A stretch of 64,000 nucleotides of DNA from Megalonaias nervosa (Eukaryota; Mollusca; Bivalvia; Unionida; Unionidae): the NCBI GenBank assembly GCA_016617855.1, contig JAECUM010001157.1, positions 62,001 to 126,000 of the forward strand, written 5' to 3'. The number at the start of each line of letters is the position of its first letter. Position 1 is the first letter of the stretch. Of the stretch, positions 7,201-47,451 are shown piece after piece. Below the pieces are notes generated by a model. It was not told the DNA's origin. It did not search any database and was given only the letters and a program-made list of their open reading frames with translations. The position numbers and the translations under genes were made by a program.

Positions 7201-10200
7201 CCTGTCAATTCAAGTATTTCTGTGTTTTCATGCTACTATTCCCATTCAGTAATGAGTAAAAGGTATGCACTGTGTTTATCCGTTTCATGACAATACTGAG
7301 GACACTATACTTGCATCTACAATGTTGTTTTTGGCATTTTAATAATTTGCAAATATCATGGGTAAATTAATAATTGCAACAATATCAGGTGTCCTTCAAT
7401 GTTGTTTACCAGTGTGTTTACTAGCATGTATTATTGCTTCCATTTTTGTGCCAATCTTAATAATCTATATTTGTATTAATATTTGTGTTTTGCTGTATAA
7501 ATACTGATTGATGCAACAAACTTTTGATTTAATTTGTATTCTCCTTTTCTAAAAGTTTGATTTAACTCACAATTATATATTTCTAATGTGGCTCAAAAAG
7601 CTCTTTGCTTGAAAAGGCAGCAATCACTTCGTTTTCAAGTTGACAAACCTTTGATCAAGCCACAAATTTAATGCATGTACTTGCTCAGTGCCAAGTAGAG
7701 TTCTACAACTTCCAGCGAACGTTCAACTTTTATCCCTTGGCTTGTAAAGGCATCACTCTCTGTTTTCCCATGTAACAACCCTCTGATCATGCTATAAGTT
7801 TGAGAAACTTGCTCAATGCCAGGTAACAGGGGGTGGTTATTTTTAAACTTCCCATGTTCTTGGCATACATGTGTTCAGTTGCAAACTTTAATAGATTTCA
7901 TGGATTGTATGATCAAAATATTACTTACAGAGCCCAAGCTCAGTCTCTATATTAGCACCTGCATTAAAGGATTTATCATATAAATGGATTTAAAAAGTCG
8001 TGCACCCACATGTTATCTCCATTTCTAAAACCATACATGTCATGTTTTCTGGGGCCAAATCAGGGTGATCAGTGTTCACAAGCAGGGAGATTTTGTCAAA
8101 ATCAGGGAGATCAGCATAACAATAATTTTTGTCATAAACTTAAGCATGAAAGTGCACACTGAACCGAAAGTTAGGAAATTAGCAGCAATGAATAATAGTT
8201 ATTCAACTTTATTTTCTTATGCAATTCTCTTAATCTCATAAATTAATTTCAGAACCTTTTCAAGAATCACTGTCTGTGCTTCAAAAACTTGTGACACACT
8301 GATATGATGATTTCTCATTTGCACCATACTTTTCAAGGTCATTTTCCTCCTACTAGTAATGTTCAAATGTGTGTCGCAAGATGTGCAGTACATAAAGCTT
8401 TCTCTATTTTCACTCATTTAAATTCATCTAACCATGTACGGTTGAACTTGCAAACATAATTCTTTTTTCCCATGGCAAATTTTCCTTCAAATCCATTAGC
8501 CTACGTTTCAACATGGTACCAAAATTATTACATTTCCAAATAGATCAAACACTGTTTTATACTTGTCAGGTTGCCTACAAGCTGTCATACTCGACACATT
8601 ACTCAATACTGAAATACTGATGAGTAAAACAACTTACGTATGTATAATAAATGAATCAGCGCATGTTACGAGCAATGATGTGATTAGTTGTTAGGTCGAT
8701 ATCACTTGACTGATGGATTACAATAGTCATAAAAGTCTATTGGATGTTGTTTAAGCTGAAAATACCTATACTTGGCAGATTTTTTATTTCCGGGAGTTTT
8801 TGTTGGGAAATTAGTAGATCAAATGATGGGGTCTAAAATCAAAAGACTACCGGGCAATCCGGGAGAAATGGCATCTATGACCGGGCAATCCGGGAGACTT
8901 GGCATCTATGACCGGGCAATCCGGGAGACTTGGCATCTATGACCGGGCAATCCGGGAGACTTGGCATCTATGACCGGGCAATCCGGGAGTCTTGGCATCT
9001 ATGCTAAAACTGTTGAATGCTGGGCAGCTATATCTGCTCTTGTTAGACTTAGAACTGATTTGACTGGGTAGTTAACATTCCAGTATGCTTCTTCTGGACT
9101 GTTTAAACACTGTAGAATGCAATATTCCTCATGATGCATTTACCTACCAAGTTATATGTTGTCTAAAAAACTGAGTTAAACATTAAGGTCAACCTACCTG
9201 CTGTTCATACAATTTCTCTCGTCTGTTGGCAACTTCATTTCTGATAAGATCACCGATGTACTCAATCACCATGGTGTGCATCTCGAGATCTCGTGCTGCA
9301 AACAACCCCAGCCCCTGCAATACAATATGATAGTACAAGGTAAATAACAGCCTCAGCCCCTGCAATACAATACAACAGTACAAGGCAAATAACTGACCCA
9401 GCCCCTGCAATACAACAGTACAATGTAATAAACAGCCCCAACCTCTGCAACACAATACAACAGTACAATGTAATAACAGCCCCAACCTCTGCAATACAAT
9501 ATGAGAGTACAAAGTAAATAATTGACCCTGCCCCAGCAATACAACAGTGCATGGTAAATAATAGCCCAGCACATGCAATACAATATGACAGTACAAGTCA
9601 ATTAACAGCCCCAGTCCCTGCAATGCAATACAACAGTACAAGGCAAATAACAGCCCCAGCCACTGCAAATACATTATGACAGTACAAGGCAAATAACAGC
9701 CCCAGCCACTGCAAATACATTATGACAGTACAAGGCAAATAACAGCCCCAGCCACTGCAAATACATTATGACAGTACAAGGCAAATAACAGCCCCAGCCC
9801 CTGCAATACAACACAACAGTACAAGGCAAATAACAGCCCCAGCCACTGCAAATACATTATGACAATACAAGGCAAATAATAGCCCCAGCCCCTGCAAACA
9901 CAATACGACAGTACAAGGCAAATAACAGCCCCAGCCCCTGCAATACAATACAACAGTACAACACAAGTAACAGCCTCAGCCACTGCAAATACAATACAAC
10001 AGTACAAGGCAAATAACAGCCCCATCCCCTGCAATGCAATACAAAAACACAAGGTAAATAACAGCCCCAGCCAATACAATATGACAGAACAAGACAAATA
10101 ACAGCCCCAGCAAATACAATACGACAGTACAAGGCAAATAACAGCCCCAGCCACCACAAATACAATATAACAGTACAAGGCAAATAACAGCCCCAGCCAC

Positions 10201-10672
10201 CGCAAATACAATATAACAGTACAAGGCAAATAACAGGTACAGCCCCTACAAATACAATACGACAGTACAAGGCAAAATAACAGCCTCAGCCCCTGCAAAT
10301 ACAATACGACAGTACAAGGCATATAACAGCCCCAGCCCCTGCAATACAATATGACAGTACAAGGTAAATAACAGCCTCACAACAACAGCAACTACTGACA
10401 GCTCATTTGAAAATTTCCTTAAAGAAAACATTTCGAGACTATGACACTTGACTAACCTGGATTCTGGATCTGCCAAGGTAAACATTATTCCTCCACTCTG
10501 TTTTCAGCCTTCTGTACTGCTGGGATTTGGAGTGGACAAACTGTTTCATGTAGGGGGAGCTCAGGTCACCTGTAATACCTGTTACAGTGGAGGGAAGAGA
10601 TCTTGTGGTGCTACTGGACTGTAGTGTGTGGGGTCTGGAATGATTGAATAAGGTATATATATAAATAAATAT

Positions 10673-15565: not shown

Positions 15566-18500
15566 ATTTCAACCTACTTGTCAACTCTGAAAATTTCTTA
15601 GTTTGTGAAACATCACACCCAAATACTACAAAATAACAACAAAATTTAATAATCATTTTCACTGCAAAATTTGTAAGCCCTCCATTACCCAAACCCCAAG
15701 AAAAATATACATTGGTTTGTCAATTATTTTAAATTTGGAATTTCAAACTTGGTTCACTTTTTAAAAAAAAAATTTTGATTTATATAAATATCTTATTACA
15801 CCTTGTACTCACTGGATATATGTGCTGCCTGGTGTGGTATCTGCCTGAGGCAATCTGGTGTGGTAACAACTGGCCAATGTTGTGCAAAATGAGGGAACCA
15901 ATCCTAAAGGTGTTCTTCCCATCCTCCTGATGTAGCATGCTGAAAAGAGAAAAAACTAGCATTTATAAATCTAACATTTTACATTAGTGCTCATTTCTTA
16001 TGAAATTTCTGACAAAAGTTGAATAATTTTTTTATTTGTAAACCTTGGTAAGCAAACTTATTCCTATGCCTGTTAGGAAACAAGGCTAGGATTATGTGAA
16101 CCTGCATGTCACTCTGTGTGTGTATATATATATATATACCCTAGGGTAGAGGCTAGCAGAATGGTATTAAATAAATACAAAATAACTCCCACATTATGAC
16201 TGGCTTGGCTTGGCTTGTGGGTTTCAATGCCATTTTTATCACATGACAGACAGTATATGGCAGCCAGTATACCTAGTGGAGGAAAAAGCACCAAGCCATG
16301 GGAAGCTACTGACAAGCTCTCTCACATGTTCAAGCTGGTTGAGCTGATACCAGCATAACTCATGCAGACAGGATGATCTATAAAGGCTTGCCCCTTAGAT
16401 GACTTGCCTCCACCCCCCATTTTGAGACTAGCACATCTAAGAATTGGTGTGTGTTGTGATCACCAAACCAAGTATCAACAAGTCTGATGAGAGGTTAAAA
16501 TGAGTTCCCTAGGGTCATGCCTTTGGACTTGCAGTTGTGTCCTGTATGTTACAAAATAGAAACCATTGAAAGTCCCATTCTGTGTGTGTGTGTGTGTGTG
16601 TGTGTGTTTATGTACACACAGACACACACACACACACCCTGTTTTTATTAGGTCTGAAAACGAAAATTTAGATTTGCACACAAATTTGGCTCCTGGGTCT
16701 ATTCTTACCTCCCCATCAAACTACATAAATACTAAACAGACCTGAAAAGACAAATTTATACATGGAACCAACATTTGGTCCCGAAGTCCATCCTTAACTC
16801 ACTGGGACTCAGTATCCTGGTGAAAGCTATGAAACTACTGAGATCTCCACTCATTAACCATTCTGGGGGTACAACTTAGATATTATATGCAATTAAAACT
16901 GGCCCCTGGGTTTATTCTCATTCCACTGACATCTGATTACTAGGGTTAATGCTTTTTAGGGGTAGGTAGGACAAAGCAGGGGAGTGTGGAAAGATGGTTT
17001 ACAAACTCTATAGTTTACCATTCAATGAGTTTCATGAACTTCTACAGCAACGAACAGTTGCAAAATTATACAGGGTTTAATGATTTCCTGAGGAAAAACA
17101 CATATACAGTGCTCATGTTCATAGTATAGTCCATCAATTCTAATTAAATCTGCATTTACCTTTTCCATGTCATGATACTCAACCAATTACCTATAACACA
17201 AACGGGTTTATGAGATGCGATACTAATGTCCTGTACACCTTTTAAATATCAAACCAATATAATATCAAACATTCAAAGCAGGTTCAAGCAACGCCATACT
17301 GATGTTATGTAATACACAAAGATTTGAGTAAACTTTGCCTTTTAAATTTCAGATTGGACCTTAACTCTTTATTCAAACTTTGTACATGTACATAAATCCA
17401 ATGAAATTGAGTCAAAGTTACTGAGACTGTCATAAACAAACAGCTGAAAATATAAAAGTCACTCAGGCATGAAAACTGGATCACATTTACCTACTTTTGA
17501 TATGCAAGATTTATTCTCCTTGATATGCCTCTTTCATGAATGTGGGTAAACTTGGGTCAAAGATAATGAAGGCACAACAAACAAAATGTTGTTGTTGTTG
17601 TAGGATTTAACGCCATTTTTCAGCACAAGATAGGCTATACATCGTGGCCAGTATAACTGGTGGAGGAAGAACCCTGGAAAACCCCGGGAAGAACCACCAA
17701 CCCACGAGAAGCTACTGGCAGGCTTTCTCACATACACACGTTTGCCGAGCCCAAGACTCGAGCCCACGCAGACAGGTGAGATGGCAGTGATCCGAAACAG
17801 TAAGCACTTCGGATCACAATGAAATGAACAAATACACAAATAAACATACATAGGAAACACATGAACAAATGGGTAAAATGCTATATCTCTTAGTAACTTA
17901 ACTGTTGAGGGGATAATGAGGTAATGAAAAACATACTTTGCCACCTGCCGATCTTCATCTCTGTTGATGTAAACACGACGGAAAACTACCAGTGAGTCTA
18001 AAATCTGTTCCACTGGTGTTGGGGTCTTGGCAATGTGATATGGACACAGAATCGTCTGAAATGAAAAATGACCATATTAGATATGCGCACTTTCTCCACT
18101 CAAAAGATATCAAACTGACTGAAATCCAAACTCATTGTCAATATCTGCATTGTGTGATACCATATTATTTCCATCTATATGTTCCATGCTACTTTTGAGA
18201 CACAATCTTTTTAGTTTTGAAAATCTGAGTTGCTTGTTTTTTCCAATATTTTCATTTCTTATAGCAGAGTCTGGTATTACAGAATGTGGATAACAGGCCA
18301 CTGTGACCTTATGCCTGTGATAAGCAGTACCTTGCATTATACTTATTATTATGAAGTTTCACCGCTGTACACATAGAAACTTAACCTTGAAGCCTTGGCT
18401 CACAACAATGACAACACTGTCAGACAGTGATACAGGGGACCCCACTGTAACACATTGCATTATAACCTGGATAAGACACTGTTGTGTCATAGTGCCTTAT

Positions 18501-21500
18501 TTCTTTTGCTGTCTTAGATGTTCCTTATTCCCTACCATTACTCAAAACCACCAGCCAGGCTGACAAATAGATATAAATCAGTTAAGTTTCAGAAACCTAT
18601 AGTTTACTGATCCTAATTTATGTTCCTACATGGAATAATTCATTTTCATTGAGCATTGGTCTATTCTAATCTTATTTGTTCTATAACGGCTGGTAGTAAA
18701 ATCAATACTATACATTGTGTTCAACTCCCTCACCCCATACAGTTTTTGACCATTTTCATTATAATGTAGCTACATAATGAAACGCATGATAGTGGGTAGC
18801 CTTGTATCTTTGTCTTGCCTGTGTTTCGTAGGTAAGACATATTAGAAATCTGATTACAATACCATATTAGTTAGTTATAAAATGTGCACAAACAGATCTG
18901 CCATTACTGATTGTGTAGATCAGGATGAATGCTGTTTGTCCTATGGACAATTTCAACTCAAATGAAGATCCGAGTCAACACTGTTTTGGAGTTGGAGTGT
19001 TAGGAGTCAACTCTGTAGGAGTTATGTGTGTTGAGTCAACACTGTTTTGGAGATGGAGTGTTAGGAGTCAACACTGTTCGAGTTATGTGTGCTGAGTCAA
19101 CACTGTTTTGGAGTTGGAGTGTTAGGAGTCAACACTGTTCGAGTTATGTGTGCTGAGTCAACACTGTTTTGGAGATGGAGTGTTAGGAGTCAACACTGTT
19201 CGAGTTATGTGTGCCGAGTCAACACTGTTTTGGAGATGGAGTGTTGGGAGTCAACACTGTTCGACTTATGTGTGCTGAGTCAACACTGTTTTGGAGTTGG
19301 AGTGTTAGGAGTCAACACTGTTCAAGTTATGTGTGCTGAGTCAACACTGTTTTGGAGTTGGAGTGTTAGGAGTCAACACTGTATGAGTTATGTGTGCTGA
19401 ATCAACACTGTTTTGAAGCTGGAGTGTTAGGAGTCAACACTGTTTGGAGCTGAGTGCTTTGATTCAAAACTGGAGTTTGAGTCAACACTGTTTGGAGGTG
19501 GGTGTGCTGAGTCAACACTGGAGTAGAGTGTGCCAAGTCTGTAGCATCTCGAGTCAGGTGTGCTGAGTGTGCACCTGGGCATGCACTGTGTAACTTAACT
19601 GGGTGTGCATTGTGTAACTTAATATTTTCCAGCTTACACTGTAATCAAGTAGAATACATTGCTGAACATCCTCTAACTTCTCTGATATATTCAAGTGCAT
19701 CATGAACATAATTCTGAACGAAGTTTTGAAAGAATAAAAAGAGTTTACCGATTTCAAATCTTTATTTGTTCTTTTTTGAATATAACATCAAGAGATTGAT
19801 GCAAATTATATATCAGAGTATATAATAAACATGCTACTGAATGTGTCCTGTCAGACAAGATTGATGGACTCTTTTTGGTGTAGCCGACTTGAAGGTTTTT
19901 TGGTCATATGACAAAATAGCTTTTCGTCACCTGAGACAACAGACAGCATAAACATAATACAAACACACAAACACATACACACACATAGCTCAGTTTGTTA
20001 TCTACAAAAAGCACTGCATCTCTTACCTTATCTTGGAAAAACCTACATCCGACTCTGATGGCACATCCAAGATGGTACACCTTAGTACAATGCAATCGAA
20101 AACAATTGACTGTTGCTCCGGTTTGCCTGCATGCAGCACACTCCACCAACAGTGACTTTTTGTATGTCTGGTCCACATTCATCAGGGCTCCGTTAAGCGT
20201 TTCATACACATCCGAGGACCACAGAGCACAGTTCAAATGAGCCCATTTGTCAATGTCCATGTTCAGTAGTCTAGAAACGGAAAGCTATCTTTATAAGAAC
20301 TCTAAGCCCAAACTATAGTCATTCGCAAGAAGTCTCAACTAATAAAAGAACAAATCAACATTTTTTTTCTCACTTTTTGCTTTAATCCAGGGTTCAAAAC
20401 TAACAGAAGGACGTTAGTCCATGACTAATAGGTTTCCTCACGGAGTAATAAATATGTTCCAATACAAGTCCGCCTGACTAATAAAAAATGAGTGCATGTA
20501 ATTATTTTAAAGTCTGCTTTTCTCGTATTTTTTAATGAAATCCATAACAGAAATGTGGACAAATAACTTGCTATTTTTAGTTACTGAACTTGTTGTAACT
20601 CCTGCATGTAAATCCAGATCACCTAGGTGCTTTATATTAAGCATTACAAATGCTGTGCAAAGCATTATTGTCACACTGACCAGGATCATAGTTAAACAAA
20701 GAAAGCAAAGAGAACAATGTGGCGATTTGTACAAGTGTGGAAAATCTGGCCAAAAGGCTGAAGACTAACAATAATGAGGACAAAAGGGAACGTGACAAAC
20801 AATATGATAAAGAAAGTAGGAACTGAACTTTTCTAGAGAAGTGGAAATGTGGTCGGCTGTGGCTTAACTTTAACCCCGAAGTAAATACCATGTTTTGCAG
20901 TGTCTGCAGAGAGCATTAAAAAACAGAAGATGAAACAAAAAGGCTCATATATAGTTGGATGTTCCAATTTACAGTTGGAAACAATAGTATACCATGAAAC
21001 CAAATAAAAAATCCATCAGAAATGCATGATCACGAGTCGAAACCCAAAGGACACTCATCTGCAAGTAAAATCGTCATGACGTTAAACGAAAAAGTTTTGT
21101 TTAGGAATGTACACGCCCTATTAAAAATGAAAAGGCCATTTAGCGATTATATGTGGATGGTCCAATTGGTTGCCAAACAGGGAATTGATATTGGTCAAAC
21201 ACATCTTAATGACAAAGATGCACAAGTATTTTCAGAATTTATTGCACAGTGTGCAAGAAATAAACTTGAACAAAAGATTAAATCAGCACCATTTATTAGT
21301 ATTATCACTGATAGTTCCATTGATAAAGGGTTCCGTGAACAAGAAGTTGTTTATGTGAGAACTGCCATGGGTGGGCAAATATACACTTCATTTTTGGGTA
21401 TGACAGAAGTTTCCCGAGCTAATGCTGATGGGATTTAAGGAGCTAATGATGATGCACCTGTATCAACTGCAATGCCTGATTACAAAAGTAAACTTGTTGG

Positions 21501-24500
21501 ATTTGGTTCTGATGGAGCTGCTGTCAATACTGGAAAAAACAACGGTGTTATTGCTAGATTTAGAGAATCACAGAAATTTCTTGTTGGAATACATTGCCAT
21601 GCTCATCGTTTGGAATTGGCTTACAAAGCTGCCATTGCAAAAAATCCTATCCAAGCAAAAGCTGAGGAGCTGTTAACAGGACTTCACTATTTGTATCGGA
21701 ATAGCCCTTTAAATAGAAGTCATTTGTTAGGTGCATGTGAGGTGCTGGGAATCACCAAGATAGTCCCTACTCATGTTGGTGAAACTAGATGGTTGGCACA
21801 TTGGCAGAGGGCTTTGGACAATTTGTGGAAATCATATCCAGCAATAGTCAGCCACCTCCAGACATTGACTAAAACTGATCAGCCTTCACCTAGAAGACCT
21901 GAAGCTACTGGGAAAGCATCTCTAAACGTTGCAAGATCTGCATCTTGTTAATTATGCCCACTTCTTGACAGATGTCATAAATTTACTGTCCAAGTTGTCA
22001 TTGTTTCTTCAAAATGAGTCTGTTTTGGTGTCTGAAGTGTACCTGAGAGTGCTTGCAACTATTGATGTCTTGGAACAGTTGAAATTAAGAGACAGGCCTA
22101 GGTTAAAAAAGTTTCCGCAGGATATTGGTAATGGGCCAATAGAAGAATTTCATGGTTTTGTACTAAAAGAACAAAGCTCTCCAACATCAGTGCAGTCATC
22201 ACTTCATGCTAGAGAGGACATGATCAACAGTTTATCAGAACACTTGAATGCCCGATATGACAAACAGCAATGTGATGTATTGAAAACCACACATTTTGCA
22301 GATTTTCATTTATGGCCAAGAGACTCAGATCATATTGGATTTGGTGATGAGGATGTTGCTGGAACATTTTTCCCCAGTAATGACAATGGCAGGCTTCTAT
22401 CCAGACAAGGTTGAAGAGGAATGGCAACTCTTGAAAAGTTTAATTTATGCTTGTGGATGTCAGGTAGAGAACTTACAATGGTGTGATGTTAACAAGAGAT
22501 TTCAAGAAGGTCACACTAACATTCTTGCACTGGTGGATATTGTGTTGATCCTTCCAGCCTTGTCTGCAGATGCAGAGAGGGGATTCAGTGAATTGAAAAT
22601 GAAGAAATCTGATTGGAGATGCAGATTGCACAGCAGTGTACTGAATGACTTGTTAACGATTCACTTTTTAAGGGAAGACATTGCTGATTATGATCCAGTG
22701 CCAGCTATATATTTATGGAACTCTTGTGGACCGAGACAAAGAAGACCGCTTTATATGGAGGACTATTCAGAATCGGATGGAGAAGATCATGATTTGGGAC
22801 AAACTGATGGCAAATCAATATATTATATATATCATATTGATTTGCCATCATGTGTATAAATCTCTGTTGTTGTGTTACGTACATGTATTTTGAGGACTAA
22901 CAACTTTTGCTGCGGACTAGTGTGTCTTTTGCCCTGTTAGCAGACCTGCCAACCCTGATGAGCCTGTCTCAGTAAGGCAGTTGAATTTTCTCCCTAAGAT
23001 TGAACAGTTTTCAGTAAGGTGTACAAAATATCAATAAGTGCTGTTGTAAAGCTGGAAAACGTAAATAAAAGTTTGATGCAGCTACGATAAACATTATGTT
23101 TAACTGAAAAGTTTGTAACGTACGCTACAAACTTTAGTTCCAAACCATATGCAACTCAATGGCTTGTTGCTATCTCTCAACTGGACATAATTCTTGGAAA
23201 TTCTTTTTCCATTTCACATTACGATGGCAATCATATCTTCCGCCACGAGACATACTCAAATTGGCATGTGATGTCCAATAAACGTAATTGTGTCCTTTCC
23301 AGCTTTTATTCACAAGAATCTGAATACTCCTTTTTATTCTTCTGTGTTGATTATTAACACTTTTAGAAGCTTATTTTCCCTTTCGTCTTAAACAAGCATC
23401 GCTTGCTGGACGACATTTTTTACAAAAGTCTATAATCAACAGTTTGATCATGCAGACGCTTTGCATGAACAAATAGGTACAGTTTAAAGCGTCTTGGGTG
23501 CTGCTGTAAAGTTAGTCTGGTTCCCTGACTAAATTTACTAATTCTAATATGAAACCCGGATCCATATCAAACATGGATGCACCAATTATCCAGATTTTTT
23601 GGCAACGATAATTTTTCATAGTTTTTTTTGTATGCTGTAAGTCCGTATTTTAAGGGTAATTTTCGTAAGACTTACGGCAAAATCGTAAGAGTTGGCAGGT
23701 CTGTGTTATTCCGCTTGCCTAGTTAATAAAAAAGTTAGTTTTGAACCCAGTAATCTATAGTAAGCTATTTCAAAATCTGAACAAAATCAATTCTTGGGAA
23801 CAACATCTTGACCCCCTGTGGGTGTATGAACCTTTAGATTTACTATACAAATAAAAATAAATGCTGGATGATCCAATTAAATATAAACTGAAAGGAAAAG
23901 TTTCAACTGGTTACATCTGTGATATGGGTGGCCATCTAGAATAAACAGGGTAGTCATTAATAACTACTTCCATTCATCTATAATGTTACACAGACAGAAA
24001 AAAAACCCCATTTTTAATCTTTCAGGAAGATTTGGATTTGGAGGCAGCAGAGTATTTTCTGGATGTAAAAAATAATCTGGTAATGTGTTTAATGGAGAAA
24101 CTGTCTATAATGAAGTACATTATACATATAATTTTACTACTACATAAAAAAAATGGAATCCACGACCATTCCAGCTTTATTAAGAAACTCTTATAATGAA
24201 GGGCCCTATCAAGACTGAGTGATGTAATCACTGACCTTGACGGTCCATCAGTGACTCCATCCCCGACTTCATGGCAGAAGGCACATTTCCTGGTGTCCTC
24301 CACAACTGTATAAACGGACAATGTCATGTTCAATGTCTTCATCAACTGTATTTAAAAAAAATGAGCATTAATTAGGTGCACAGAGAGCCAAGTAGGTGTA
24401 CATGTAGACAGGTATACAAGTAGACAACACTATTTCTGCTAATGTTAATAAACATGGACATTATAAAAACCTAAATAGTAAAAATAAACCACAAATTCAA

Positions 24501-30500: not shown

Positions 30501-33500
30501 TTGTTTTACCAAGGCAAGTAGATACAGTGTCTTGTGCAAGGAAAACACAGCAGTCAATCTGGGCTCATGCAGTGATTGGAATTTTGAAACCTGAAATCTT
30601 ATGGTCATGATGCCTTATTGTGAGCCATCATATCTCATTATCAAATCTAAATGTTAACATCATAGCCATTATGTCTCATTATTGAATATATATGTCTCAT
30701 TATAGAATATATATGTGAATATCTTAACCATCATGTCTTATAGAATCTAAAGTTTGATATCATAGCCATAATGTCTTATTATAGAATATATATATATATG
30801 CTAACATCATAGCCATGAAGTCTCATTATTAAATCTAAATGTTAACATCACAGCCATCATGACTCATTATCAAATCTAAATGTTAACATCAAACACATCA
30901 TGACTCATTATCAAATCTAAATGTTAACATAATGGCCATCATGTCTCATTATCAAATCTAAATGTTAACATCATGGCCATCATGACTCATTATCAAATCT
31001 AAATGTTAACATCATAGCACATCATGACTCATTATCAAATCTAAATGTTAACATAATGGCCATCATGACTCATTATCAAATCTAAATGTTAACATCATGG
31101 CCATGATGTCTCATTATCAAATCTAAATGTTAACATCATGGCCATCATGACTCATTATCAAATCTAAATGTTAACATCATGGCCATGATGTCTCATTATC
31201 AAAGCAAAATGTTAACATCATAGCCATGATGTCTCATTAGGGCTGTTCCATTTAAACATGCATGGTACCCAGGGAAGGCAGTTGTTTTAAAAAAAATTAC
31301 ATGCCAGGGTACTTTTGATGTCACAGACTTCTTAATAGAATGATAAGAAAATTCTAAATTGCAGCTATGGGTGAGGATCCAACACTGAAAGTGTCTTCCC
31401 TGTAATATAAATGTTAACATTGTAGAAGATATGGATTACCATGCTGTGGTATGTAAGACAATTGCTTATTATGATTACAGGTGAGACAACTGCTTATTAT
31501 GCTTACAGGTGAGACAACTGCTTATTTTTCATTAAACAATCTCAACTTAAATCTGCTGAACTGATGAAGAGTATCATGCAAAAGAAAATTTCTAATTTTT
31601 ACACCTAATATTAAATTCTGTCCAACCTGTTTCCCAGATAATTAAAAATGTTTGGCCATACATTTTGAATTAATTGAACATAATATTGCCGATGGTGAAA
31701 CAAAAGTACACACAATCTTCTGTCACAATAACCTTCATGGATATTATAAATCCAATGAAAGACTTCCTATTACAATGCATTGTGTAGGGTTATCCAGTAA
31801 GTTGTCAAGCACACTGCGGCATCCAAAATGTTTACTGCACTGTAACATGACGTTACAGTGCATCTGTTATGATGCTACAATATGTGAACAGAAATCAAGT
31901 TACAGAATGTATTTTTATGTGTGATTCAGTGATAAAAAATAATATTTTATTCAACAACATTTGTATCCTTCTTAATTTGCATCAAGTAATTTATATACAA
32001 TTTATTACTGAACCAATAGGACTAAATTATAATCAATTAAAGTCTGTACTGTTGGACATCATGGTCTTGCTCAATATAGCTCACAATATCCAACAATACA
32101 AACACTATCTTGCAAAACTACTCCCAAACTATCATGTCTAAATGAAGTAATTGAAGCAATACAAATAACTCCATGATATTGGAAAATACATTTTTTATCA
32201 GCTTGGAATGTGTCTTCCATTTAGCCAGGATTTACTTTTAAGACTGATAATATTTCTGCATCTGTAAAGGACTGTGTTTTTCAACAACTATTTCTTACTT
32301 CATTTTGGTACCTGATCCTCTTTTTCACAACTATTTCTTACTTCATTTTGGTACCTGATCCTCTTTTTCACAACTATTTCTTACTTCATTTTGGTACCTG
32401 ATCCTCTTTTTCACAACTATTTCTTACTTCACTGGGTACCTGATCCTCTTTTTCACAACTATTTCTTACTTCACTGGGTACCTGATCCTCTTTTTAACAA
32501 CTCCTTCTTACTTCACTGGGTACCTGATCCTCTTTTTAACAACTCCTTCTTACTTCACTGGGTACCTGATCCACTTCTTAACAACTACTTCTTACTTCAC
32601 TGTGTACCTGATCCTTTTTTTAACAACTGTTTCTTATTTTGTTAGATACCTGATCTTTTTAACAACCATTTCTTATTTTGTTAGATACCTGATCTCTTTA
32701 ACAATTATTTCTTACTTCATTAGGTACCTGATCCTCTTTTGAAAGGAAAGGCACTTCTGTCTTTTTCTTGCTAATCCCAACATTCATCACTATCACATCA
32801 CAGTGGCGGCAAAATCTGGGCTTAGATTTCATCAAGGACTGGATATTTATCACTTCTTCTTGGTCTGAAACACAAATTAAAATATTTTTAAAATTATTTT
32901 ATTAGTGACAATATTGTATGGACACACATAAAATCCTGATCTTGGGAATTACCCAGTACAGGCATATTAATGGGTTTGGCTCCAGTGGTCAGTCTTGGGG
33001 AATTCACCAGTGCAAACATTAATGGGTTTAGCTTTGGTGGTCAATATTAGTGAATTAACCAGCGCAAACATATTAATGAGTTTGGCTCTGCTGGTCAATC
33101 TTGGGGAATAAATATATGATATAGGTAAGGTCACTGGGGTACAGTGCATCATGAAAATGTTATGGACATCTTATACTTGGATACACTTTGCTGTGATATA
33201 GACAAGGTCATCTTATACAGGGGTATTTGTATGTGACATAGGCATCATCATCTTATACTGCAGTACATTGAGCTGTGATATAGACAAGGTCATCTTATAC
33301 AGGGGTATTTGTATGTGACATAGGCATCATCATCTTATACTGCAGTACACTGAGCTGTGATATAGACAAGGTCATCTAATACTGGGGTATTTGTATGTGA
33401 CATAGGCATCATCATCTTATACTGCAGTACATTGAGCTGTGATATAGACAAGGTCATCTTATACTGGGGTACATCATGCCATCATGCAGGCAAGGTCATC

Positions 33501-36500
33501 TTATACTGTGTTACACTGTGCTGTGATATAGGCAAGATCATCTTGTACTGGGGGACAATGTGCCATCAGATAGGCAAGGTCATTTGTACTGGGATACATC
33601 ATGCAATCAAATAGTTAAGATCATCTTGTACAGGAGTACACTGTACCATGATATAGGTGCAGTCATCTTATACTGGGGTACATTGTGACATGGTATAAGC
33701 AAGGTCATCTTATACTGGGGTACACTGTGACATGATATGAGCAAGGTCATCTTATACTGGGGTGCATCATGTCATGATATAACCAAAGGTAATCTTATAC
33801 TGAGGTAGATCGTGTCATGATATAAGCAAGGTCATCTTATACTGGGGTACATTGTGTCATGATATAAGCAAGGTCATCTTATACTGGGGTACATCGTGTC
33901 ATATGAGCAAGGATAAGCAAGGTCATCTTATACTGGGGTACATCGTGTCATATGAGCAAGGATAAGCAAGGTCATCTTATACTGGGGTACATCGTGGTAT
34001 AATATAGGAGCAATTATCTTATACTTGCGTATATCGTGTCATGATATAAGCAAGGTCATCTTATACTGGGGTACATCGTGTCACAATATAAGCAAGGTCA
34101 TCTTATATTGGGGTACAATGTGCTGTGATAAATGCACTAATGGGGGGTCCTAAGCTGTAAAAGTCTTTTTAAGTAAGGGTTATCCATTGTGAAATAAGTC
34201 ATTATCATTACTATCTTCACTTACGTTTTATATTCATTTTCAAATGCTCAGGGGATGGGCTCCTACTCAATTCATAGCTCGGTGGAACAGCAATCTTGAG
34301 CAAATCTGCAATAGCTGACAACACTCCACCTATGTCTTCTGCAGCCTTGGCTGACAAAGTCAAGGTAACAGACACTTCTTTACTCTGATTTGGACCTGAA
34401 AATGTCTTGGAAAGTCCTGTAAATGGATCAATGTCTCCTGAGAAATGTTCTTTTCCAATGATATGACTAAACTCTGGTTCAATTTCTGTCTTCTGTGACA
34501 ATTCAGTTACTGGTAAATATGCTTGGAGTTGATCCCTCTGCTCAATTTTAGGGTCCACTAGAAGCAGATTTTCTTGTTTGATGTGGATCATGGGCATCTT
34601 AATTGGAACTGGTTGAAGAATTGGAACTGTTGGTGAGGTTCCGTCATCCCCACTAGACTTATCAGGATCAATGGGCCGCAGCATTGGATAATCTGTCTCA
34701 TTTTCTGCCTCTCCAAATCCAAGCTCAGGTGAAGACGAAGATATTACAGTCTCTGGGCTTTTACTAAGTCTGTTGAACAAATAATAAAGAGAAATGAGAC
34801 GTAAGTAACATGGATCTAAATCTGTTGTACAAATAATAAAGAGAAATGAGACATAAGTAACATGGATCTAAATCTGTTCTACAAATAATAAAGAGAAATG
34901 TGACATAAGTAACATGGATCTAAATCTGTTGTACAAATAATAAAGAGAAATGAGACATAAGTAACATGGATCTAAATCTGTTGTACAAATAATAACGAGA
35001 AATGTGACATAAGTAACATGGATCTAAATCTGTTGTACAAATAATAAAGAGAAATCAGACATAAGTAACATGGATCTAAATCTGTTGTACAAATAATAAA
35101 GAAAAATGAGACATAAGTAACATGGATCTAAATCTGTTGTACAAATAATAAAGAGAAATCAGACATAAGTAACATGGATCTAAATCTGTTATACAAATAA
35201 TAAAGAGAAATGAGACATAAGTAACATGGATCTAAATCTGTTGTACAAATAATAAAGAGAAATCAGACATAAGTAACATGGATCTATGTCTGTTGTACAT
35301 CTGAGAAATATAACTTGAAGAATGAGCTTAATGTAAACACTTGGAAATGAGCTCAATGTTACACATCGAGTTTAATACAAAAACCTGAAAATAGTGCTTA
35401 AAGTAAAAACTTTAACACTGACAAGTTAAAAAAGAATAAGACAATGAACTTAGTCCAAAAACATCAACACTGAGCTTAATGTAAAAACTTGTAATGTAAT
35501 ATGGAGCTTATCCTAGTATTTAGACATGTGGTATATATATATTGATGTTGTTGTTGTAGTAGGGTTTAATGCCATTTTTCAGCACAAGATAGGCTATACA
35601 TGGCAGTCAGTATAACTGATGGATGAAGAACCCTGGAAAACCCCAGCAAGAACCACTGACCCACAAGAAGCTACTGGCAGGCTTTCTCACATACCCACAT
35701 TAGCCGAGCCTGAGACTTGAACCCACGCAGACAGAGGTGAGATGGCAGTGATCCAAAACGGTGAGCGCTTTAGACCACTTGGGGCCCCGTATATATATTG
35801 ACATACACATGGTTGACAAAGTGTGTTCAAATTACTTATTAATTGATAACCAGCAACAGATAATTTGTTGTACACTTGTAATTTTTTTAAAACTGATTAT
35901 TTCTATCTTCTATGTACAACACTATTTAAAATAAACTTTAGAGACAAGAAAGTGGCAGAAATTTGCATATTTGATAACTCTGAGGTCTTGAGTTTGATTC
36001 CAAATTTTGGCCTGAAGACAGAAATATCAATCTAGGTTTTTTAAAATTTTCTTTCACCTTAATTACCATGGAGGCTGAGGGATTAGTATGCCAGACTCTT
36101 GACCCAGAGTGTGGGTTCAAAATTCCATGTTATATACTCACTTACAAGTTGGATCCAACTGCAAACTGCATTAACCCAACTACAGACTGTACAGACCGAG
36201 AAAGAGCTAAGTGGCTTTCCAAATGACACAGGTGGCAATTCCAGGCTGGCCTGGCCAGGTACTGAACTGGTAACACTTGTATTAGGAGTCCAAGCTCCAC
36301 CAGCTGAGCCCCCTATGTGTGGGAAGGTGTTCAGTGAATGAGTGGAAACATTACACAAATATGTACTTACTCTGGAAGGACATCAACCTTGGGTTCAATC
36401 CTCGGTGGTGATGGCAGTGTGGGTTTGAAAAGAGGTGGCATCCCTCCTAGGAATGGAATATCCTGGCTAAGTGGAAACATCAGGGGCTGATCCCCACTGA

Positions 36501-39500
36501 GCCTCTGTCTCTCTTCACGATTTGCCTCTATTGACAAAAGGATACCAATGAAAATGACCAACAATATTAAAATTCATGAGCAAATAAATAATCACTTTAC
36601 AGACCAAGAAAAGGTAAATAAATTTCACATTTTATCCTGCAGAAGTATGAAAATTTGATTTACACTATGATATCCATCACCCATTTTTGATAGTAATCTG
36701 TTTTCAAGAGCATCATCTTTATAAACAAGACAGTAATAGAACAATTTTGCTAAATCCATATACTAAAGTTTAAAAATATTTCCGTAAAACTTTATGAGCA
36801 TTTCTTGTTTCGACACTAATGAGGTCATTCCATACAGAAGTATGGGAAAAAGTACCCTGGCACCAACTGTCGTCCATCAAAAGTATTGAGATTATTGATG
36901 GCTTGGAGAGATGAAGTCATACTAATTTACACAAGATCAGATCATTAGATAAGATCAGATGAAAGAATATAACTCCAGGTCCATTTTAATTACCACACAC
37001 ATACTGCTCTTAATATTCCAACATTTCTTTTCATCTCGCAAGAAAAAAAACATTTTTTAACATTATCTGAAAAATTATTGTGATCTAATTTTCAAAGCAT
37101 TTTCAACCACTATTATTTCAAGCATTAATTTCTGTGAAACAATACACAATGAGTCTAATCATTTACCTAAATTAGAGTAAACTCCTTTGCCTCTTTATTT
37201 TGTACATCAACATGAAAGGCCATTGGGTATATATTTTGCTACTAACTTTGGCATGAACAACAAGTTTGCTACTATTTATAGTAATACAAATTATGTTTGG
37301 TAACACAGAATATACACTTTGCCATAAGCATGGAGTGAGTGAAATGTCTCCATGTCAAAAGAATAATAGTGAAAACAGTACACAAAAATGTATTAAATCT
37401 GAAATGTTAAAGATCTTACACCCGTCTAATCTAATACACAGTCAAAAGTGCATTGGTTAGTTCAGTTTGTTCGCAGCATGACACAATCATTGTGATAATA
37501 TCAGCTTTCTACAACAAAATGCCTGCATGGCTGATTTATGTAGGTCATAAAAAAATGTCTTCAATAGTTTCTTGTTGACTTTACTATCTTCCTTCACAGA
37601 ATGGTTTTTGTGACTAATAAAATTGTATAATTGTTTGTTATTTTTCAATATTAATAAGAAACATACATTGCAAAAACATTTTTTTTATCCCATCTCCCCA
37701 AGAGCTCAGGGCTCTATGATAAACTCAGCTACAAGTACTATTCCATCAATTATAGCATTTTATGTCCAATCAATTATATCATTTTATATCCAATCATTTC
37801 TAGGGTTCAGGGCACTATGATACATTCATCTACAATTACTATTTCATCAATGACATATTTTTTAATCCCATCACTCCAAGAGTTCAGGGCACTATAATAC
37901 ACTCAGTTACAAGTACCGTTTGATCAATTACATCATTTTATATTAAATTTTTTCATGGGTTCATGGTACTATGATACACTCAGTTACAAGTACTGTTACA
38001 ACAATTACATCATTTTATATCCAACATCTCCAAAAGTTTGGAGCACTATGGTACATTCAGCTACAAGATACTGTTACATCAATGACATCATGATCATATC
38101 AGTTTGAGCTGCAAAGAAAGCATTTATTTTACAAAAGTGAACATCATCTAGAAAACTTTCTTTTCCCCATTTATAAGGTCAACCCTCACATATCAAACAT
38201 TTTACAAAAGTGGGTTCCTGTGTTTATCAAACTAGAAACACAATTACTTGAGAGATACATGTACAATGTGTCATTAAGTTGACTCACCCTCAGTGAAGAA
38301 CCTGCGCCGCTGGTCATTTGTCATGTGAAGTGGCCCACTGTGTAGACCTAGGAATGAGCCAAGGGGAGGCAATACACCTGACAGCAATCCCCCATAAAAA
38401 TCAGGAACTCCTTCCAGGTATGCTGCTCCAAATGATCCCTGAAGCTGGCTTTCATCTGTTGGACAAAGAAACAATGTGTGTCCAAATGACATGAATCAAT
38501 ATCATACAACTAAAGGGCTGATATTTAAGTAAAACAGGGGCCATAACTCATTCAAAAGTGTGCAGGAAAATCATAAAAATCAAATCTGACCTAAATCTTC
38601 TTAGTATATAATCTTAAAACAAATTTGGTTTCAATCTGTTAAGTCCTTCAAAATTACTGAGCAGAAACTGAATAGCAGGAACAAAGTCAAATAAGGGCCA
38701 TAACTCTGTAAAACTGCAGGAAAACATTAAAAATTAAACCTGACTTTGGTCTTTTTGTGGAAAACCTCGTACCAAATTTGATTTTTTTTCTTTAACCCAT
38801 GATTCATCAAATGCCGCTGAGCAGAAATAAACTTCATAGTATTATGCATCTATACTGTGTAACCTTTGGTACATGACTGTATCTATATTGTTTGTAAGTT
38901 TTGTCCACGACTATAAATTATAATGATCATCCATGAACAAGATGTAACATAGCTAATTTTTTCATCATTGGGTTTAGATTCTATTTTTAAAGATACTAAG
39001 CTATAAATGCGTGTTTACAAGTTAAATTCAACCTATATGGATCATGGTTTATGTGATGTTGTAGATTTATAGTTAGACTGGATTACAGTTTATATAATGT
39101 TGCTAGATGTATAGTCAGTAGTTAGACTGGATCAGAGTATATATGATGTTGCTAGATGTATATTCAGACTGGATAACAGTTTCATTTTATGAATTTATTT
39201 TATCATTACACATAAAGATTTTCAAAGCAGATTTTACACTAAAATAAAAGAACAAAGCATAATTCTAAGTTGCAGATACTGTTTGACATCTGGATATCAT
39301 AAAATTTAGCAACAGGGAACTAAGCTTACAGTAAATGACACTTATGTAAACTCTTACTGCTTAATATTGGAGCTGAGCCTGCCACTGAGATAATAGCCTG
39401 TGTTGTGTTAACGAAGGGCTCTTGAAGGGGAACTGGGGGTAACTGCTTCAAATCTTTCAACATGCTTTCAAACATGGCTTCAAAGTTCTCCAAGGCTTCT

Positions 39501-42500
39501 GCTTCCACTGGCTTCTTTTTCCTGGACTTTTTCTTTGGTGGTGGTTTTTCTTTGTCAACAGGGGGCACCTGACTTGGTTGGCTTTCTGTTGATACCTGAC
39601 CTTGACTTGTACCATCACTCGTGCTGTTACTCTTCTTTTTCCGTTTCTTTGGTGGGCCTTGTTGTCCCTCTTCTGCCTTTTTCTTTGCTTTTTTCTTACT
39701 CACTTCTATTTCTTTACGACGTTTCTCATACTCAAGCCGTCTTGTTTCTATAAAAAGAAAAGATGTTTTATTCTTTATTATATGTCAGGAGTACTTAAAT
39801 TGTTGGTTCGTTGGTTCTAATGTCCCTTTAAACCATATGATTGCCTACATAATGCTGTTGGAAATGGGATATAAGTACCTCTGTCCAGAACACACCTTGG
39901 CAGCTGACTGAGGTTGGCCAGGGTGGATTTATAACTTGCAACCCTTCATTTAGGAGTCTGATGTTCAACCAAATGACTTATGGTTACCAGCAAATATGTC
40001 CAAATATAATAAAAGTCGGTATATGCATATACTGATATTTAGTGTTTAGTATTTAAAACAGCTCTCATTTTTAAGGATATTAAAAAACTTAAACCTTTCA
40101 ATCACTGTCATGCTCTATACATTTAAGGACAGCAAGAATAAAGATATATAGGTATGTAGTATTGTACTGAGATAAAAAAACCCAAGGGACATTTTGCCAC
40201 TCCAAACTGTCGCTGTCCACCTAAATATCTTTACCCTTATAAAAAGACAAAGGCACATACAATATCACCCAGACGGATAAGCCTAAATGCAGCACTATGC
40301 ATATATGTATAGGGTTCACCAGCAAATCAGCACAATACTGGCTATATAGTGGATCATGGTTTATTTGATGTTGTAGATTTATAGTTAGAATGGTTTATAT
40401 AAAGTTGCTAGATGTATAGTCAGTAGTCAGACTGGATCATAGTATATATGATGTTGCTAGATGTACAGTCAGACTGGATAACAGTTTATGTGATGTTGCT
40501 AGATTATAGTCAGACTGGATCATGGTTTATGTGATGTTGCTAGATATATAGTTAGACTTGATCATGGATTATATGATGTTGCTATGTCAAGACTTGTGCA
40601 ATGTTGCTAAATGTCATGTCACACTGGATCATGATTTATGTGAATATTGCTAGCTGTCATGACAGACTGTCATGATTTATGTGATGTTGCTAGATGTCAG
40701 AATGTATCATGACAGGTAATGTTGCTATGTCAGATTATCATGACTTATGTTTTTTGCTGGATGTCATACAAGACACTCATGGTTTAAGTGATATTGCAAG
40801 ATGTTCTGTCAGACTGCATAATGATTTGTGTGGTGTTGCAAGATGTCATAATTTATGCAATGTTGCTAAACATCATGTCAGACTGAATTGTGATTTATGT
40901 GATGTTACTAGATGTCATGACAGACTGTCATGATGTGAAGTTGCTAGATGTCAGGTTGTATCCTGACCTATGTGATGTTGGTACATGCCTGGTTGTATCA
41001 TGATGTATGTGATGCTGGTACATGTCAGGTTGTTATCATGACCTATGTGATGTTGGTACATGTTAGGTTGTATCATGACCTATGTGATGCTACAAATGTC
41101 AGACTGTGTCATGATTTACAAAACTAGAAAATTAATATGAACATATCTAATGAACTGGCATTTAAAATTGTTACTTTGACCTTTGATCCCATGAACCAAT
41201 ACATGGAATCCTCATTAAAACTGGATGTACTTGCGTGCCAAGTTGACCATTATTTATTTTACAACTGTTTAACAGGGCTTGATGATGCACAAAGCATGGT
41301 TATCAAGTTATTACAAGTTCTCCAATTTTCTCTATGGCAAGAAACATGTAATGCTGCCATCTAAGCCATTAACAGTACTTCCATGGAATGCCAAATCTTG
41401 CTTGTGATTGATTTCTGCATACACAGGCAAGATAGAATTTTCTAATATCAAGATACACAAATCTGTCTGACAGTAATACTGTGCAAAGTTTTGTTGAATA
41501 CTTCAACTGATATAGAAGTCACGTGACCTTCAAAACTATTCCACTGGACCATAACATTGCTGACACTTCTGTTGCTGCCATTGATGCCAAAAAATTATTA
41601 GCATGAAAAGTAAATGTGTTTAAGAAATTGTTGCTGCAAGAAAGTCACAAAATGAAACCTGCATTATTGCCCAAAGGTCATGCATCACTGATTTAATTGT
41701 TTTAATTTCATAATTATCCATCCAACATGACTAAAACATCAAGGAGTTTGGGAAATGTTAACAAATTTAATCAACAGCAGTATTAACTGTGGACATACAT
41801 GATGTCATACTGGTATCAGTTATACAAAACTGAATGCCCTTGATTCTAGAATGCTTTCTATCAAATTTATTAATATTCCACTGAGCTCTTTTTCGGATGC
41901 CCAAAGGTTCTATTCTGAGTAACTGTGGCCATGTTTGATGACAGACCAACATCTTTTGCATAAATTTGAGAAGTTTTGATGCCAGGATGCTTTCTGCCTT
42001 TTGCCAGGTCAATTTATAAAAACCTTTACAACAAAAACCTTAAAACACATTTTCTATGACTGACAATGATTCCAAGTTGATGGGCCAAGCCAATGTACAG
42101 CACAATGAATTACCTTACCTTCACAATGATTCAACCCACTTTATGAACAAAATCTATCATGTGATATAGGAAAGGTAAGTATATGAAAATGTCTTACTTA
42201 AACCTAAATAAAAATTTTCAATTAATGTGCATATGGTCTGAAGGTCAATGGAGTGAGCACACAAAAACACACTGAACTATCTCAGCTTCATAATGATTCA
42301 TGCCAAGTTTGAGGTTTAGGGAATACATGGATACGAAAATCTTGAACCAAAACATTAATAACCTGTAATGCCACCCTTGTTGTTGCTGCTGGAAAAGTGA
42401 GCTCGACATTAATGACTGCATAGAATTAAAAACAATACTATAACATGTCAAATTCAATACAGGTCAAATTAAACAAATGCTGGAACATGTCAAATTAAAA

Positions 42501-45500: not shown

Positions 45501-47420
45501 AAACAAGACATCAAAATAAGTCGTGAAAACCTTATGCTGATATGACTTTTGTTTTAGGGTAGTAACAATAGGAGCACTTGTTTTCAATATGGCCAACATG
45601 GTAGCCATGTTAGATATCAAATTGGCATCATTTCCATTTGGGAACCAAGTAGATATCACAAGATAGAAGTATATTATCAATATGAGCACACATCAAATAG
45701 TAGCTATAATAATTAATGCATTCTTTAATATCTAGCCAAAATATAGTTTTAGAATAATTTATTTTTACAATTCAGTTGTTTAAAATGGCATTTTTAATAC
45801 ATCTTCTAATGTGCAGCTAGTTTAAGCCTAACTGTGAGTGGCCTACCTAACAGACATATTTAATTCTGTAACATTCTAAACTCTGCATCTTAACAATTTT
45901 AATGTAATGTCATCAGGAACAGCAGTATTATCACAGCCATTAGTTTGGGTCTTCTCTTGACACAACAGTGGTGTACCATTTTTTGGTTAGATATGGTACA
46001 AAACATCTGCTGAGCACTGCCAGTGTGTGCTCTTTGATCTTTACCGCCAAGTGAGGCAGAAATAAACAACAGCATGAGCTTGCAGCACTGGATGGGGAGT
46101 TCTTGTGTCCGGTACATATGTATGCAAGTGGCATTGGTTGCCGGGTATCTTTTGTGAGGATCTGTAGATATGAGAGGCATGAAGTCACTATTACAGAAAG
46201 CACTGGTGCCGTTAACATAATTATTTCTCATTGATTATAAATCAAAGATCACGAGTTTTGAGGTTTTCAATGATGATCATTACTTGCAACCTGCCAAAAA
46301 TATCTGAAACAGATCTTTCAGCAACAATCTTAAGGTATTATGACTGTGACCAGGTAAGCTACAAAATAATTGTTACTAAAATTCTGCTGGTGGGCACTGC
46401 AATATATTTAGATAAATTAGAGCTGTATTTTTCAAGGTGACGACAGTGAAAACTTCAAAAGACTAACTTTATATCTTGACCGCACTGAACTACAGAAAGT
46501 GCCAACTATGTGAGCGTTACTGGAGTGCAGGTAGTTATTTTCTCATATATGAAAACCACTATATGGATTTGTGTGCATGTCAAACTTAAAAACATTTTAT
46601 CAAACACTTTTTTTTTTAGAATAAAAAGTTCCTCACTGAGGAATTTATTTTCATGCAAACTTTTACAACTGCACAAGTCTGAAATTTAAACAACTGATTT
46701 CTTATTTTGATTTGGAACACAGTGCCAAGACTAAGCAGTTTTCTTTACAGAAAATTATTCTTTAAAAAAAGAGCAGTTAATTATTTTATTACCTAAGCAT
46801 TTAAGTATCGCAGCGAGTTGTTTTTTGTTTTAAATTACTGAAATTCCTTATAACTGTTAATAGATTAAATTTTCATGCAAAACCTTTGTTTTTAATATGT
46901 GGTCGCAATTTGCTTTGAATCTTCGTATCATTTAGGATTAATCATATTTTTAATTTAAAATTCAGGTACAAGTTATACATCTTATTCAATGGCAATAGTG
47001 GATCAAAATATTTTCATACACAATTTTAATAGGGTAGACTTTATTAAATAATTTTTATTAAGTGCTAAGCTGTCAAACATTCTGGGATAATCAAAAATCA
47101 ACAAGTTGTGTATGTTTATTGGCCTACTTGTGAAACTAGTTCTGTAAAACGAAACCCACAAGGATAAAAATTCCATCTGGTCGAACGTTCTGCTATTGAA
47201 TGATGGGACTGATTATATATTCCATGTCATGTGATACATTTCATACTGCTGTCATAAGAGTTAATAAGTCTCTCTCTCTCTCTCTCTCTTGTCCATTTCC
47301 AACTTGAGAGAGAGAGAGAGATCCTTTCCAACTTGAGAGAGAGAGAGATCCTTTCCAACTTGAGAGAGAGAGAGAGATCCTTTCCAACTTGAGAAAGAGT
47401 GAGATCCTTTTCAACTTGAG

Positions 47421-47451
<31 letters not shown>

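What the first reader, a model, noticed from the sequence alone, without database searches (positions are those of the whole stretch)
9315..10380. The 3' splice site of the KMT2C/D SET exon is the seed of a minisatellite with at least 16 further acceptor copies
Seen: the unit repeated through intron 17 contains the acceptor TTGCAG and the first roughly 14 bases of the SET exon (GGGCTGGGG plus TTGTT or CTGTT). At least 16 copies keep the acceptor core. Almost the whole intron is array. A spliceosome scanning this intron meets a series of near-equivalent 3' splice sites before the real one, in one of the most conserved domains of the genome. Inference: the array grew from a duplication across the intron-exon junction. 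I know of no such description for KMT2 genes.
Basis: partly seen in the sequence, partly recalled or inferred. Interest (0 to 1): 0.87.

Follow-up and report, generated by a model that had tools for sequence, protein, structure and literature searches.

The report
Repeated splice-site copies in KMT2 gene
In an animal gene for a histone-modifying enzyme, short DNA stretches that straddle exon edges have been copied in tandem into the neighbouring introns, making rows of look-alike splice sites; the same kind of structure is already known from amphioxus, and whether it alters splicing here is untested.

Summary
On the minus strand, the SET exon of a KMT2C/D gene (9314-9198) follows a 1,142-nt intron that is 93% minisatellite (array 9301-10376, 45/46 bp). 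The unit carries the acceptor and the first 14 exon bases (13 of 14 match the consensus). Of 23 in-register upstream copies, 17 keep AG, 16 as TTGCAG. The exon start is conserved in KMT2 proteins, so the junction most likely seeded the array.

It is not alone. The same gene has a second acceptor array (34764-35299, 52 bp) and a donor array (32278-32740, 42 bp). Of 35 splice sites tested, 3 have seven or more nearby copies and 32 have none at 70% identity. The kind is known: amphioxus 'mirages', reported not to disturb splicing.

Most likely a by-product of tandem duplication, with the last acceptor used. Eight of 18 scored decoys beat the real site on a recalled matrix, but 13 of 18 lack the branch-site-like motif that the real copy has. 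Two near decoys, 9360 and 9405, would insert 15 or 30 residues in frame. No RNA, relatives' DNA or population data were available. New member of a known kind.

The parts
9198..9314 (-). KMT2C/D SET exon ([21 protein letters not shown]...); donor CAG|GTAGGT at 9197
   Evidence: phmmer of the joined 168 aa to KMT2D 1.5e-94; Pfam SET 8.2e-26; donor
9301..10376 (-). Array A: 45/46-bp minisatellite; unit holds acceptor plus first 14 exon bases
   Evidence: TRF; unit alignment
9301..9314 (-). Exon-derived seed, GGGCTGGGGTTGTT
   Evidence: 13 of 14 to unit consensus
9315..9359 (-). Last unit with the real acceptor (AG ends at 9315); branch-site-like TTTAC 26 nt upstream
9360..9405 (-). Nearest two decoy acceptors (AG ends at 9360 and 9405); use would add 15 or 30 residues in frame, no stop
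10457..10634 (-). Preceding exon, ending ...VYLGRSRIQ; donor CAG|GTTAGT at 10456
   Evidence: frame joins to SET exon
34764..35299 (-). Array B: 52-bp minisatellite across the acceptor at 34770; unit ...TTATTATTTGTACAACAG|ATTTAG; 9 other copies at 70% or more
   Evidence: TRF
34225..34769 (-). Exon whose acceptor lies in array B (...[17 protein letters not shown]...); donor at 34224
   Evidence: assigned from the reading frame, no RNA
32278..32740 (-). Array C: 42-bp minisatellite across a donor; unit AAAAGAGGATCAG|GTACC...GAAGTAAGAA; 10 of 10 decoys keep CAG|GTA[CT]
   Evidence: TRF
32728..32864 (-). Exon whose donor lies in array C (...[12 protein letters not shown]...FLSKEDQ|); real donor either CAG|GTACCT at 32727 or GAA|GTAAGA at 32715
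   Evidence: assigned from the reading frame; no PDB or Pfam match

Best explanation
Array A is a junction-spanning minisatellite of the kind called a 'mirage'. A short tandem duplication took in about the last 31 intron bases and the first 14 bases of the SET exon, and unequal exchange or slippage then multiplied it through the intron. The copies are by-products, not parts of the gene product. The spliceosome most likely still joins at 9315, because that copy has the exon body and downstream donor attached and has a branch-site-like TTTAC, where most inner copies read TTTGC, probably through one change spread by homogenisation. Shown: repeat anatomy, match of the 14 bases to the exon, retained AGs, absence of the motif from most decoys, two further such arrays. 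Inferred: the order of events, the branch-site role, use of 9315.
For: Exon-derived 14-mer in register and present in units 3-24. GLGL start shared with KMT2C/D in the three alignments shown. Intron-like residues directly before GLGL in 17 of the first 33 related ORFs, and no second GLG-like copy in any of the 33; of all 146 related proteins held, 116 show the motif and none shows it twice. The unit at the far edge is the closest to the real unit, 0.927 against 0.70-0.88 for units 3-24, and units 16 and 17 are identical: preserved edges and inner turnover, as reported for an amphioxus globin mirage (PMC3087553, passages). Two more junction arrays; 3 of 35 sites tested have seven or more copies. 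yUnAy about 15-45 nt upstream in 15 of 17 real acceptors and 5 of 18 decoys. Published mirages are reported to keep regular mRNA (passages).
Against: On the recalled acceptor matrix 8 of 18 decoys outscore 9315 and one equals it; 9315 is the second lowest of 12 real acceptors scored. The change at the motif is probably one event spread among related units, so 5 of 18 against 15 of 17 is not a set of independent observations; which letter is ancestral is not known; yUnAy is a recalled consensus, and two real acceptors lack it. Five decoys, 9405 among them, keep the motif. No RNA, no reads, no DNA of relatives.
Confidence: 0.8

Rival explanations
1. The copies are working alternative acceptors: 9405 and 9360 (and 9489, 9528, 9618, 9663) are used part of the time and make SET-domain isoforms with 15-116 extra residues directly before GLGL, so array length affects H3K4 methylation.
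For: Six decoys join in frame without a stop. 9405 scores 5.2 and 9360 4.3 against 3.7 for 9315, and 9405 keeps a yUnAy motif, TTTAT. The SET frame has 1 stop in 354 codons of array.
Against: All three frames are unusually open (1, 5 and 4 stops against a mean of 47 in total for mononucleotide shuffles), so openness comes from the unit, not from selection on one frame. None of 146 related proteins shows a doubled GLGL-type motif, but these come from other species and are a capped list (120 of 460, 33); the array part of the ORF matched nothing at E 0.001. Decoy use would meet a stop early in array B (9 decoys examined) and array C (10 of 10).
Confidence: 0.08
2. The array arose inside the intron by chance and later grew over the exon edge; the match to the exon is capture or coincidence rather than seeding.
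For: I merged 20 minisatellite arrays in the window and 17 do not cross a known splice site. Because array A nearly fills its intron, random placement alone would let it cross an edge with probability 0.31 when 15 bases of entry are allowed. For array B only 5 of 6 exon bases match, which is weak.
Against: For A the exon-derived bases are in units 3-24 and about as well kept as the rest, as expected if they were in the founding unit. For three of 19 arrays to cross junctions the expected number is 0.30-0.67, P 0.0016-0.018.
Confidence: 0.12
3. Assembly artefact: copies were multiplied or mis-joined by the assembler.
For: Units 16 and 17 are identical and 15 nearly so, so the exact count is open to error. 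PMC3087553 reports that one amphioxus mirage appears aberrantly assembled in the draft genome (passage).
Against: The other neighbouring units differ from each other (0.65-0.93), and a row of differing units is hard to invent; three separate arrays with different units show the same anatomy.
Confidence: 0.04

Closest known systems
'Mirage' minisatellites of amphioxus: Adh3 (Canestro et al. 2002, known here only through citing papers), globins BflGb6 and BflGb9 (PMC3087553, passages), troponin C and PGBD5 (PMC3902484, passages)
   Same: Tandem repeats whose unit spans an exon-intron boundary; both 5' and 3' boundaries; many copies keep AG/GT; edge units escape homogenisation (BflGb6).
   Different: Here in a gene whose closest named matches are molluscs, in the SET exon of KMT2C/D, with three arrays in one gene and about 10-24 units of 42-52 bp (BflGb6: 150-160 bp, 3 or 6 units; Adh3: 10-72 bp units). 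Splicing and polymorphism are not tested here.
Tandem repeats at exon-intron boundaries in human segmental duplications (PMC2812944, passages)
   Same: Minisatellite expansion, in some cases at boundaries, with possible activation of cryptic splice sites or new introns.
   Different: Half of those repeats lie in coding sequence, in recent primate paralogs; here the copies lie in introns of an old gene with a conserved intron position.
NAGNAG-type tandem acceptors (recalled)
   Same: Several competing acceptors before one exon, in-frame variants.
   Different: Copies about 45 bp apart, carrying whole acceptor regions, not 3-nt shifts.

Membership tests
Mirage (junction-spanning minisatellite) | Repeat unit contains an exon-intron boundary with both exonic and intronic bases | tested here: met
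   Array A 13 of 14 exonic bases; C 13 of 13; B 5 of 6, weak
Mirage (junction-spanning minisatellite) | Tandem array adjoining the genuine boundary | tested here: met
   TRF coordinates against exon edges read from frames and homology, not RNA
Mirage (junction-spanning minisatellite) | Many but not all copies keep the AG or GT signal | tested here: met
   A: 17 of 23 upstream copies keep AG; C: 10 of 10 keep CAG|GT
Mirage (junction-spanning minisatellite) | Regular mRNA splicing is not disturbed | not testable with these tools
   No RNA reads for this organism
Mirage (junction-spanning minisatellite) | Length instability between alleles or cells | not testable with these tools
   One sequence only; identical units 16-17 hint at recent turnover
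KMT2C/D (host gene) | FYRN/FYRC followed by SET and post-SET at the C-terminus, closest to KMT2C/D | tested here: met
   KMT2D 1.5e-94 and KMT2C 2.2e-92 against KMT2A 8.1e-46; FYRC, FYRN and SET in Pfam; CRKWMN end

The most novel reading that the evidence does not exclude
The SET-exon array is a length-variable splicing module: decoys 9405 and 9360 are used at a regulated level, giving KMT2 proteins with 30 or 15 extra residues just before the GLGL motif of the SET domain, so that minisatellite alleles tune histone H3K4 methylation; and this genome creates such arrays at splice junctions more often than elsewhere in introns.
Probability: 0.07. Interest if true: 0.8.

Novelty: new member of a known kind. 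Interest (0 to 1): 0.5.

Why it matters
Three rows of near-copies of splice sites in one conserved gene are a natural test of how a spliceosome chooses among look-alikes: score, branch site, attached exon and distance can be separated because the copies vary. It also suggests that junction-seeded minisatellites are not confined to amphioxus, where they were proposed as a route to new introns (PMC3087553, passages).

Tried and rejected
Coding role of the array: unproven; all frames are open because the unit has few stop codons, and the array part of the ORF has no relative at E 0.001 among 245 candidates. The readthrough ORF 9192-9719 matches Pfam only through its SET end, below the curated cut-off.

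Selection keeping or removing decoys: the A and G of the acceptor keep 0.77 and 0.86 in units 3-24, against a mean of 0.88-0.90 for the other parts of the unit, so there is no clear sign either way.

Structured RNA: no Rfam match in the window at gathering score. Another copy of the unit elsewhere in the window, either strand: none at 32 of 46 identities or better, without gaps.

NCBIfam's single weak SET match (44.6 bits, cut-off 550) is to a bacterial effector; ignored as below cut-off.

Own genome: the genome search was asked five times with the same request and never answered, so genome-wide frequency is unknown. I fetched no DNA of related animals; the caps allow no scan of the metagenome collection, and the other DNA collections hold prokaryotes, viruses, phages or plasmids.

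Limits of the splice-site test: 17 acceptors and 18 donors, assigned by me from reading frames and homology, without RNA. The donor 39341 is uncertain (its alternative 39329 also had no copy); the acceptor of the exon ending at 43914 was not placed; exons between 60300 and about 44 kb were not sought systematically. Donor C is ambiguous between 32727 and 32715. In one search one of the 18 scored decoys, 9528, is out of register. A control of 1,000 random 37-mers outside arrays gave 76 with at least one other copy at 70%, so a single copy means little; seven or more next to the site is what counts. The placement test used 19 of the 20 merged arrays (47296-47451 lay outside the listed introns; 10 short-unit arrays were left out before), allowed 6, 10 or 15 bases of entry into an exon, and was designed after seeing the data.

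Literature: ten searches. 'Minisatellite' with 'KMT2D' gave 2 papers, listing only, on cancer topics; KMT2C and mollusc terms were not searched. PMC3087553, PMC3902484, PMC12783039 and PMC2812944: passages only. PMC12783039 (earthworm metallothionein) has intronic minisatellites; the four passages seen do not describe them as crossing a junction. Canestro et al. 2002 is not held. The remarks on duplicated splice sites, NAGNAG, yUnAy and the acceptor matrix are recalled.

Full report
What was checked. The minus strand of the window carries the 3' part of a KMT2C/D gene. Joining exons read from the sequence gives 168 residues that match solved KMT2D at 1.5e-94 and KMT2C at 2.2e-92, but KMT2A only at 8.1e-46; Pfam finds SET, FYRC and FYRN. 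The nearest named proteins are from the mussel Mytilus galloprovincialis and the land snail Bradybaena similaris, both 88% identical, so the organism may be a mollusc or a near relative; it was not identified.

Array A. The intron between the exon ending ...SRIQ (donor at 10456) and the SET exon starting GLGLF (9314) is 1,142 nt long, and 1,062 of these are a minisatellite of 45/46 bp. Read on the coding strand the unit is GGGCTGGGGCTGTT-ATTTGCCTTGTACTGTCATATTGTATTTGCAG (consensus used). Its first 14 bases match the first 14 of the SET exon (13 of 14, against at most 8 of 14 at any other offset), and the match stops there (6 of 26 beyond). Sixteen further TTGCAG acceptors and one TTGTAG are present; in register, 17 of 23 upstream units keep AG.

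Direction. The exon start GLGL is shared with KMT2C/D in the three structure alignments shown. The intron position looks old: of the first 33 related ORFs, 9 have the spliced SRIQ-type stretch before GLGL and 24 have something else, of which 17 show a longer intron-like stretch, 6 only 2-4 residues and 1 (P0019) is cut off; none of the 33 has a second GLG-like copy upstream. A script over all 146 related proteins held found the motif in 116 and never twice. These are short ORFs from a capped list, so an array elsewhere in such an intron could be missed. The exon-derived columns are about as well kept as the others in units 3-24 (0.90 against 0.88 for columns 15-42). A founding duplication across the junction is the simplest account. 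The edge unit farthest from the exon is the closest to the real acceptor unit (0.927; units 3-24 0.70-0.88), and units 16 and 17 are identical, with 15 one base away, which fits turnover inside and preserved edges.

Not alone. Reading the arrays of the window against exon edges showed two more. Array B (34764-35299) has a 52-bp unit ending in TTATTATTTGTACAACAG and overlaps the acceptor at 34770; only about six exon bases are shared and one differs. Array C (32278-32740) has a 42-bp unit containing AAAAGAGGATCAG|GTACC and overlaps a donor; the last 13 exon bases match the one unit compared at 13 of 13, and all ten decoys keep CAG|GTA[CT]. In C the used donor may be CAG|GTACCT (32727) or GAA|GTAAGA (32715); 8 of 10 decoy units keep the second. 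In a scan of 35 splice sites, 3 had seven or more copies at 70% identity and 32 had none. Random placement of 19 arrays in their introns would make 0.30-0.67 cross an edge, P 0.0016-0.018 for three or more, depending on how far entry into the exon is allowed; array A contributes about half of that expectation since it nearly fills its intron, and the test was designed after seeing the data.

Consequences if decoys were used. In A, six decoys (9360, 9405, 9489, 9528, 9618, 9663) join in frame without a stop and would insert 15 to 116 residues right before GLGL; the other 12 shift the frame or meet a stop. In B the nine decoys examined meet a stop after 15-18 codons, and in C all ten would meet a stop nine codons past 32727. 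The openness of A is a property of the unit: 1, 5 and 4 stops in the three frames against a mean of 47 in total for 500 mononucleotide shuffles.

How the real site may be chosen. On a recalled human-like matrix 9315 scores 3.7, the second lowest of 12 real acceptors scored; 8 of 18 decoys score higher and one the same. In B the real site (5.9) beats all ten decoys. A yUnAy motif about 15-45 nt upstream, also recalled, is present for 15 of 17 real acceptors including 9315 (TTTAC, 26 nt) and for 5 of 18 decoys of A (10339, 10029, 9528, 9489, 9405); at that column 17 of 22 units have G where the real unit has A. This makes loss of the branch site in the decoys a testable explanation, though it probably rests on one substitution spread by homogenisation. 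From recalled work on duplicated splice sites, attached exon sequence also favours the last copy. 9405 has both a good score and a motif, and is the decoy I would expect to be used first.

Known or new. The kind is described: in amphioxus, minisatellite-like tandem repeats of intron-exon boundaries, called mirages, occur in Adh3, globins, troponin C and PGBD5 (the last imperfect), at 5' and 3' boundaries, and are reported not to disturb regular splicing (PMC3087553 passages; PMC3902484 passages). The KMT2 arrays meet the anatomical features of that kind; normal splicing and length instability could not be tested. The ten searches listed in Tried and rejected showed no account for a KMT2 gene; they did not use KMT2C or mollusc terms. 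Three such arrays in one gene is the point most worth following.

Changes made on checking.

Noticed in passing
20998-22856 (+): Broken ORFs, the last resembling a hAT-type transposase (Dimer_Tnp_hAT 0.0064, below the curated cut-off; the other two without a match), in the intron between the two extended-PHD exons.
   Followed up: partly
55926-56991 (+): Reverse transcriptase ORFs of a LINE-like element (RVT_1 1.1e-19 for 55926-56489), antisense to KMT2, downstream of its large exon.
   Followed up: partly
17537-17800 (-), 47490-47792 (+), 57817-58056 (-): Dispersed element with related translations ([43 protein letters not shown]) at several places (by eye).
   Followed up: no
whole window: Twenty merged minisatellite arrays with units of 20 bp or more; several have units of 41-42 bp (25030, 30670, 32278, 33167, 40424) that look different by eye.
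   Followed up: partly
39070-39167 and 40424-40699: Two arrays in different introns share a related unit (...CATCTAGCAACATCATATATACTCTGATCCAGTCTAACTA) (by eye).
   Followed up: no
P0017: A relative's 129-kb contig has an ORF running from SRIQ straight into GLGL, so this intron seems absent there.
   Followed up: no
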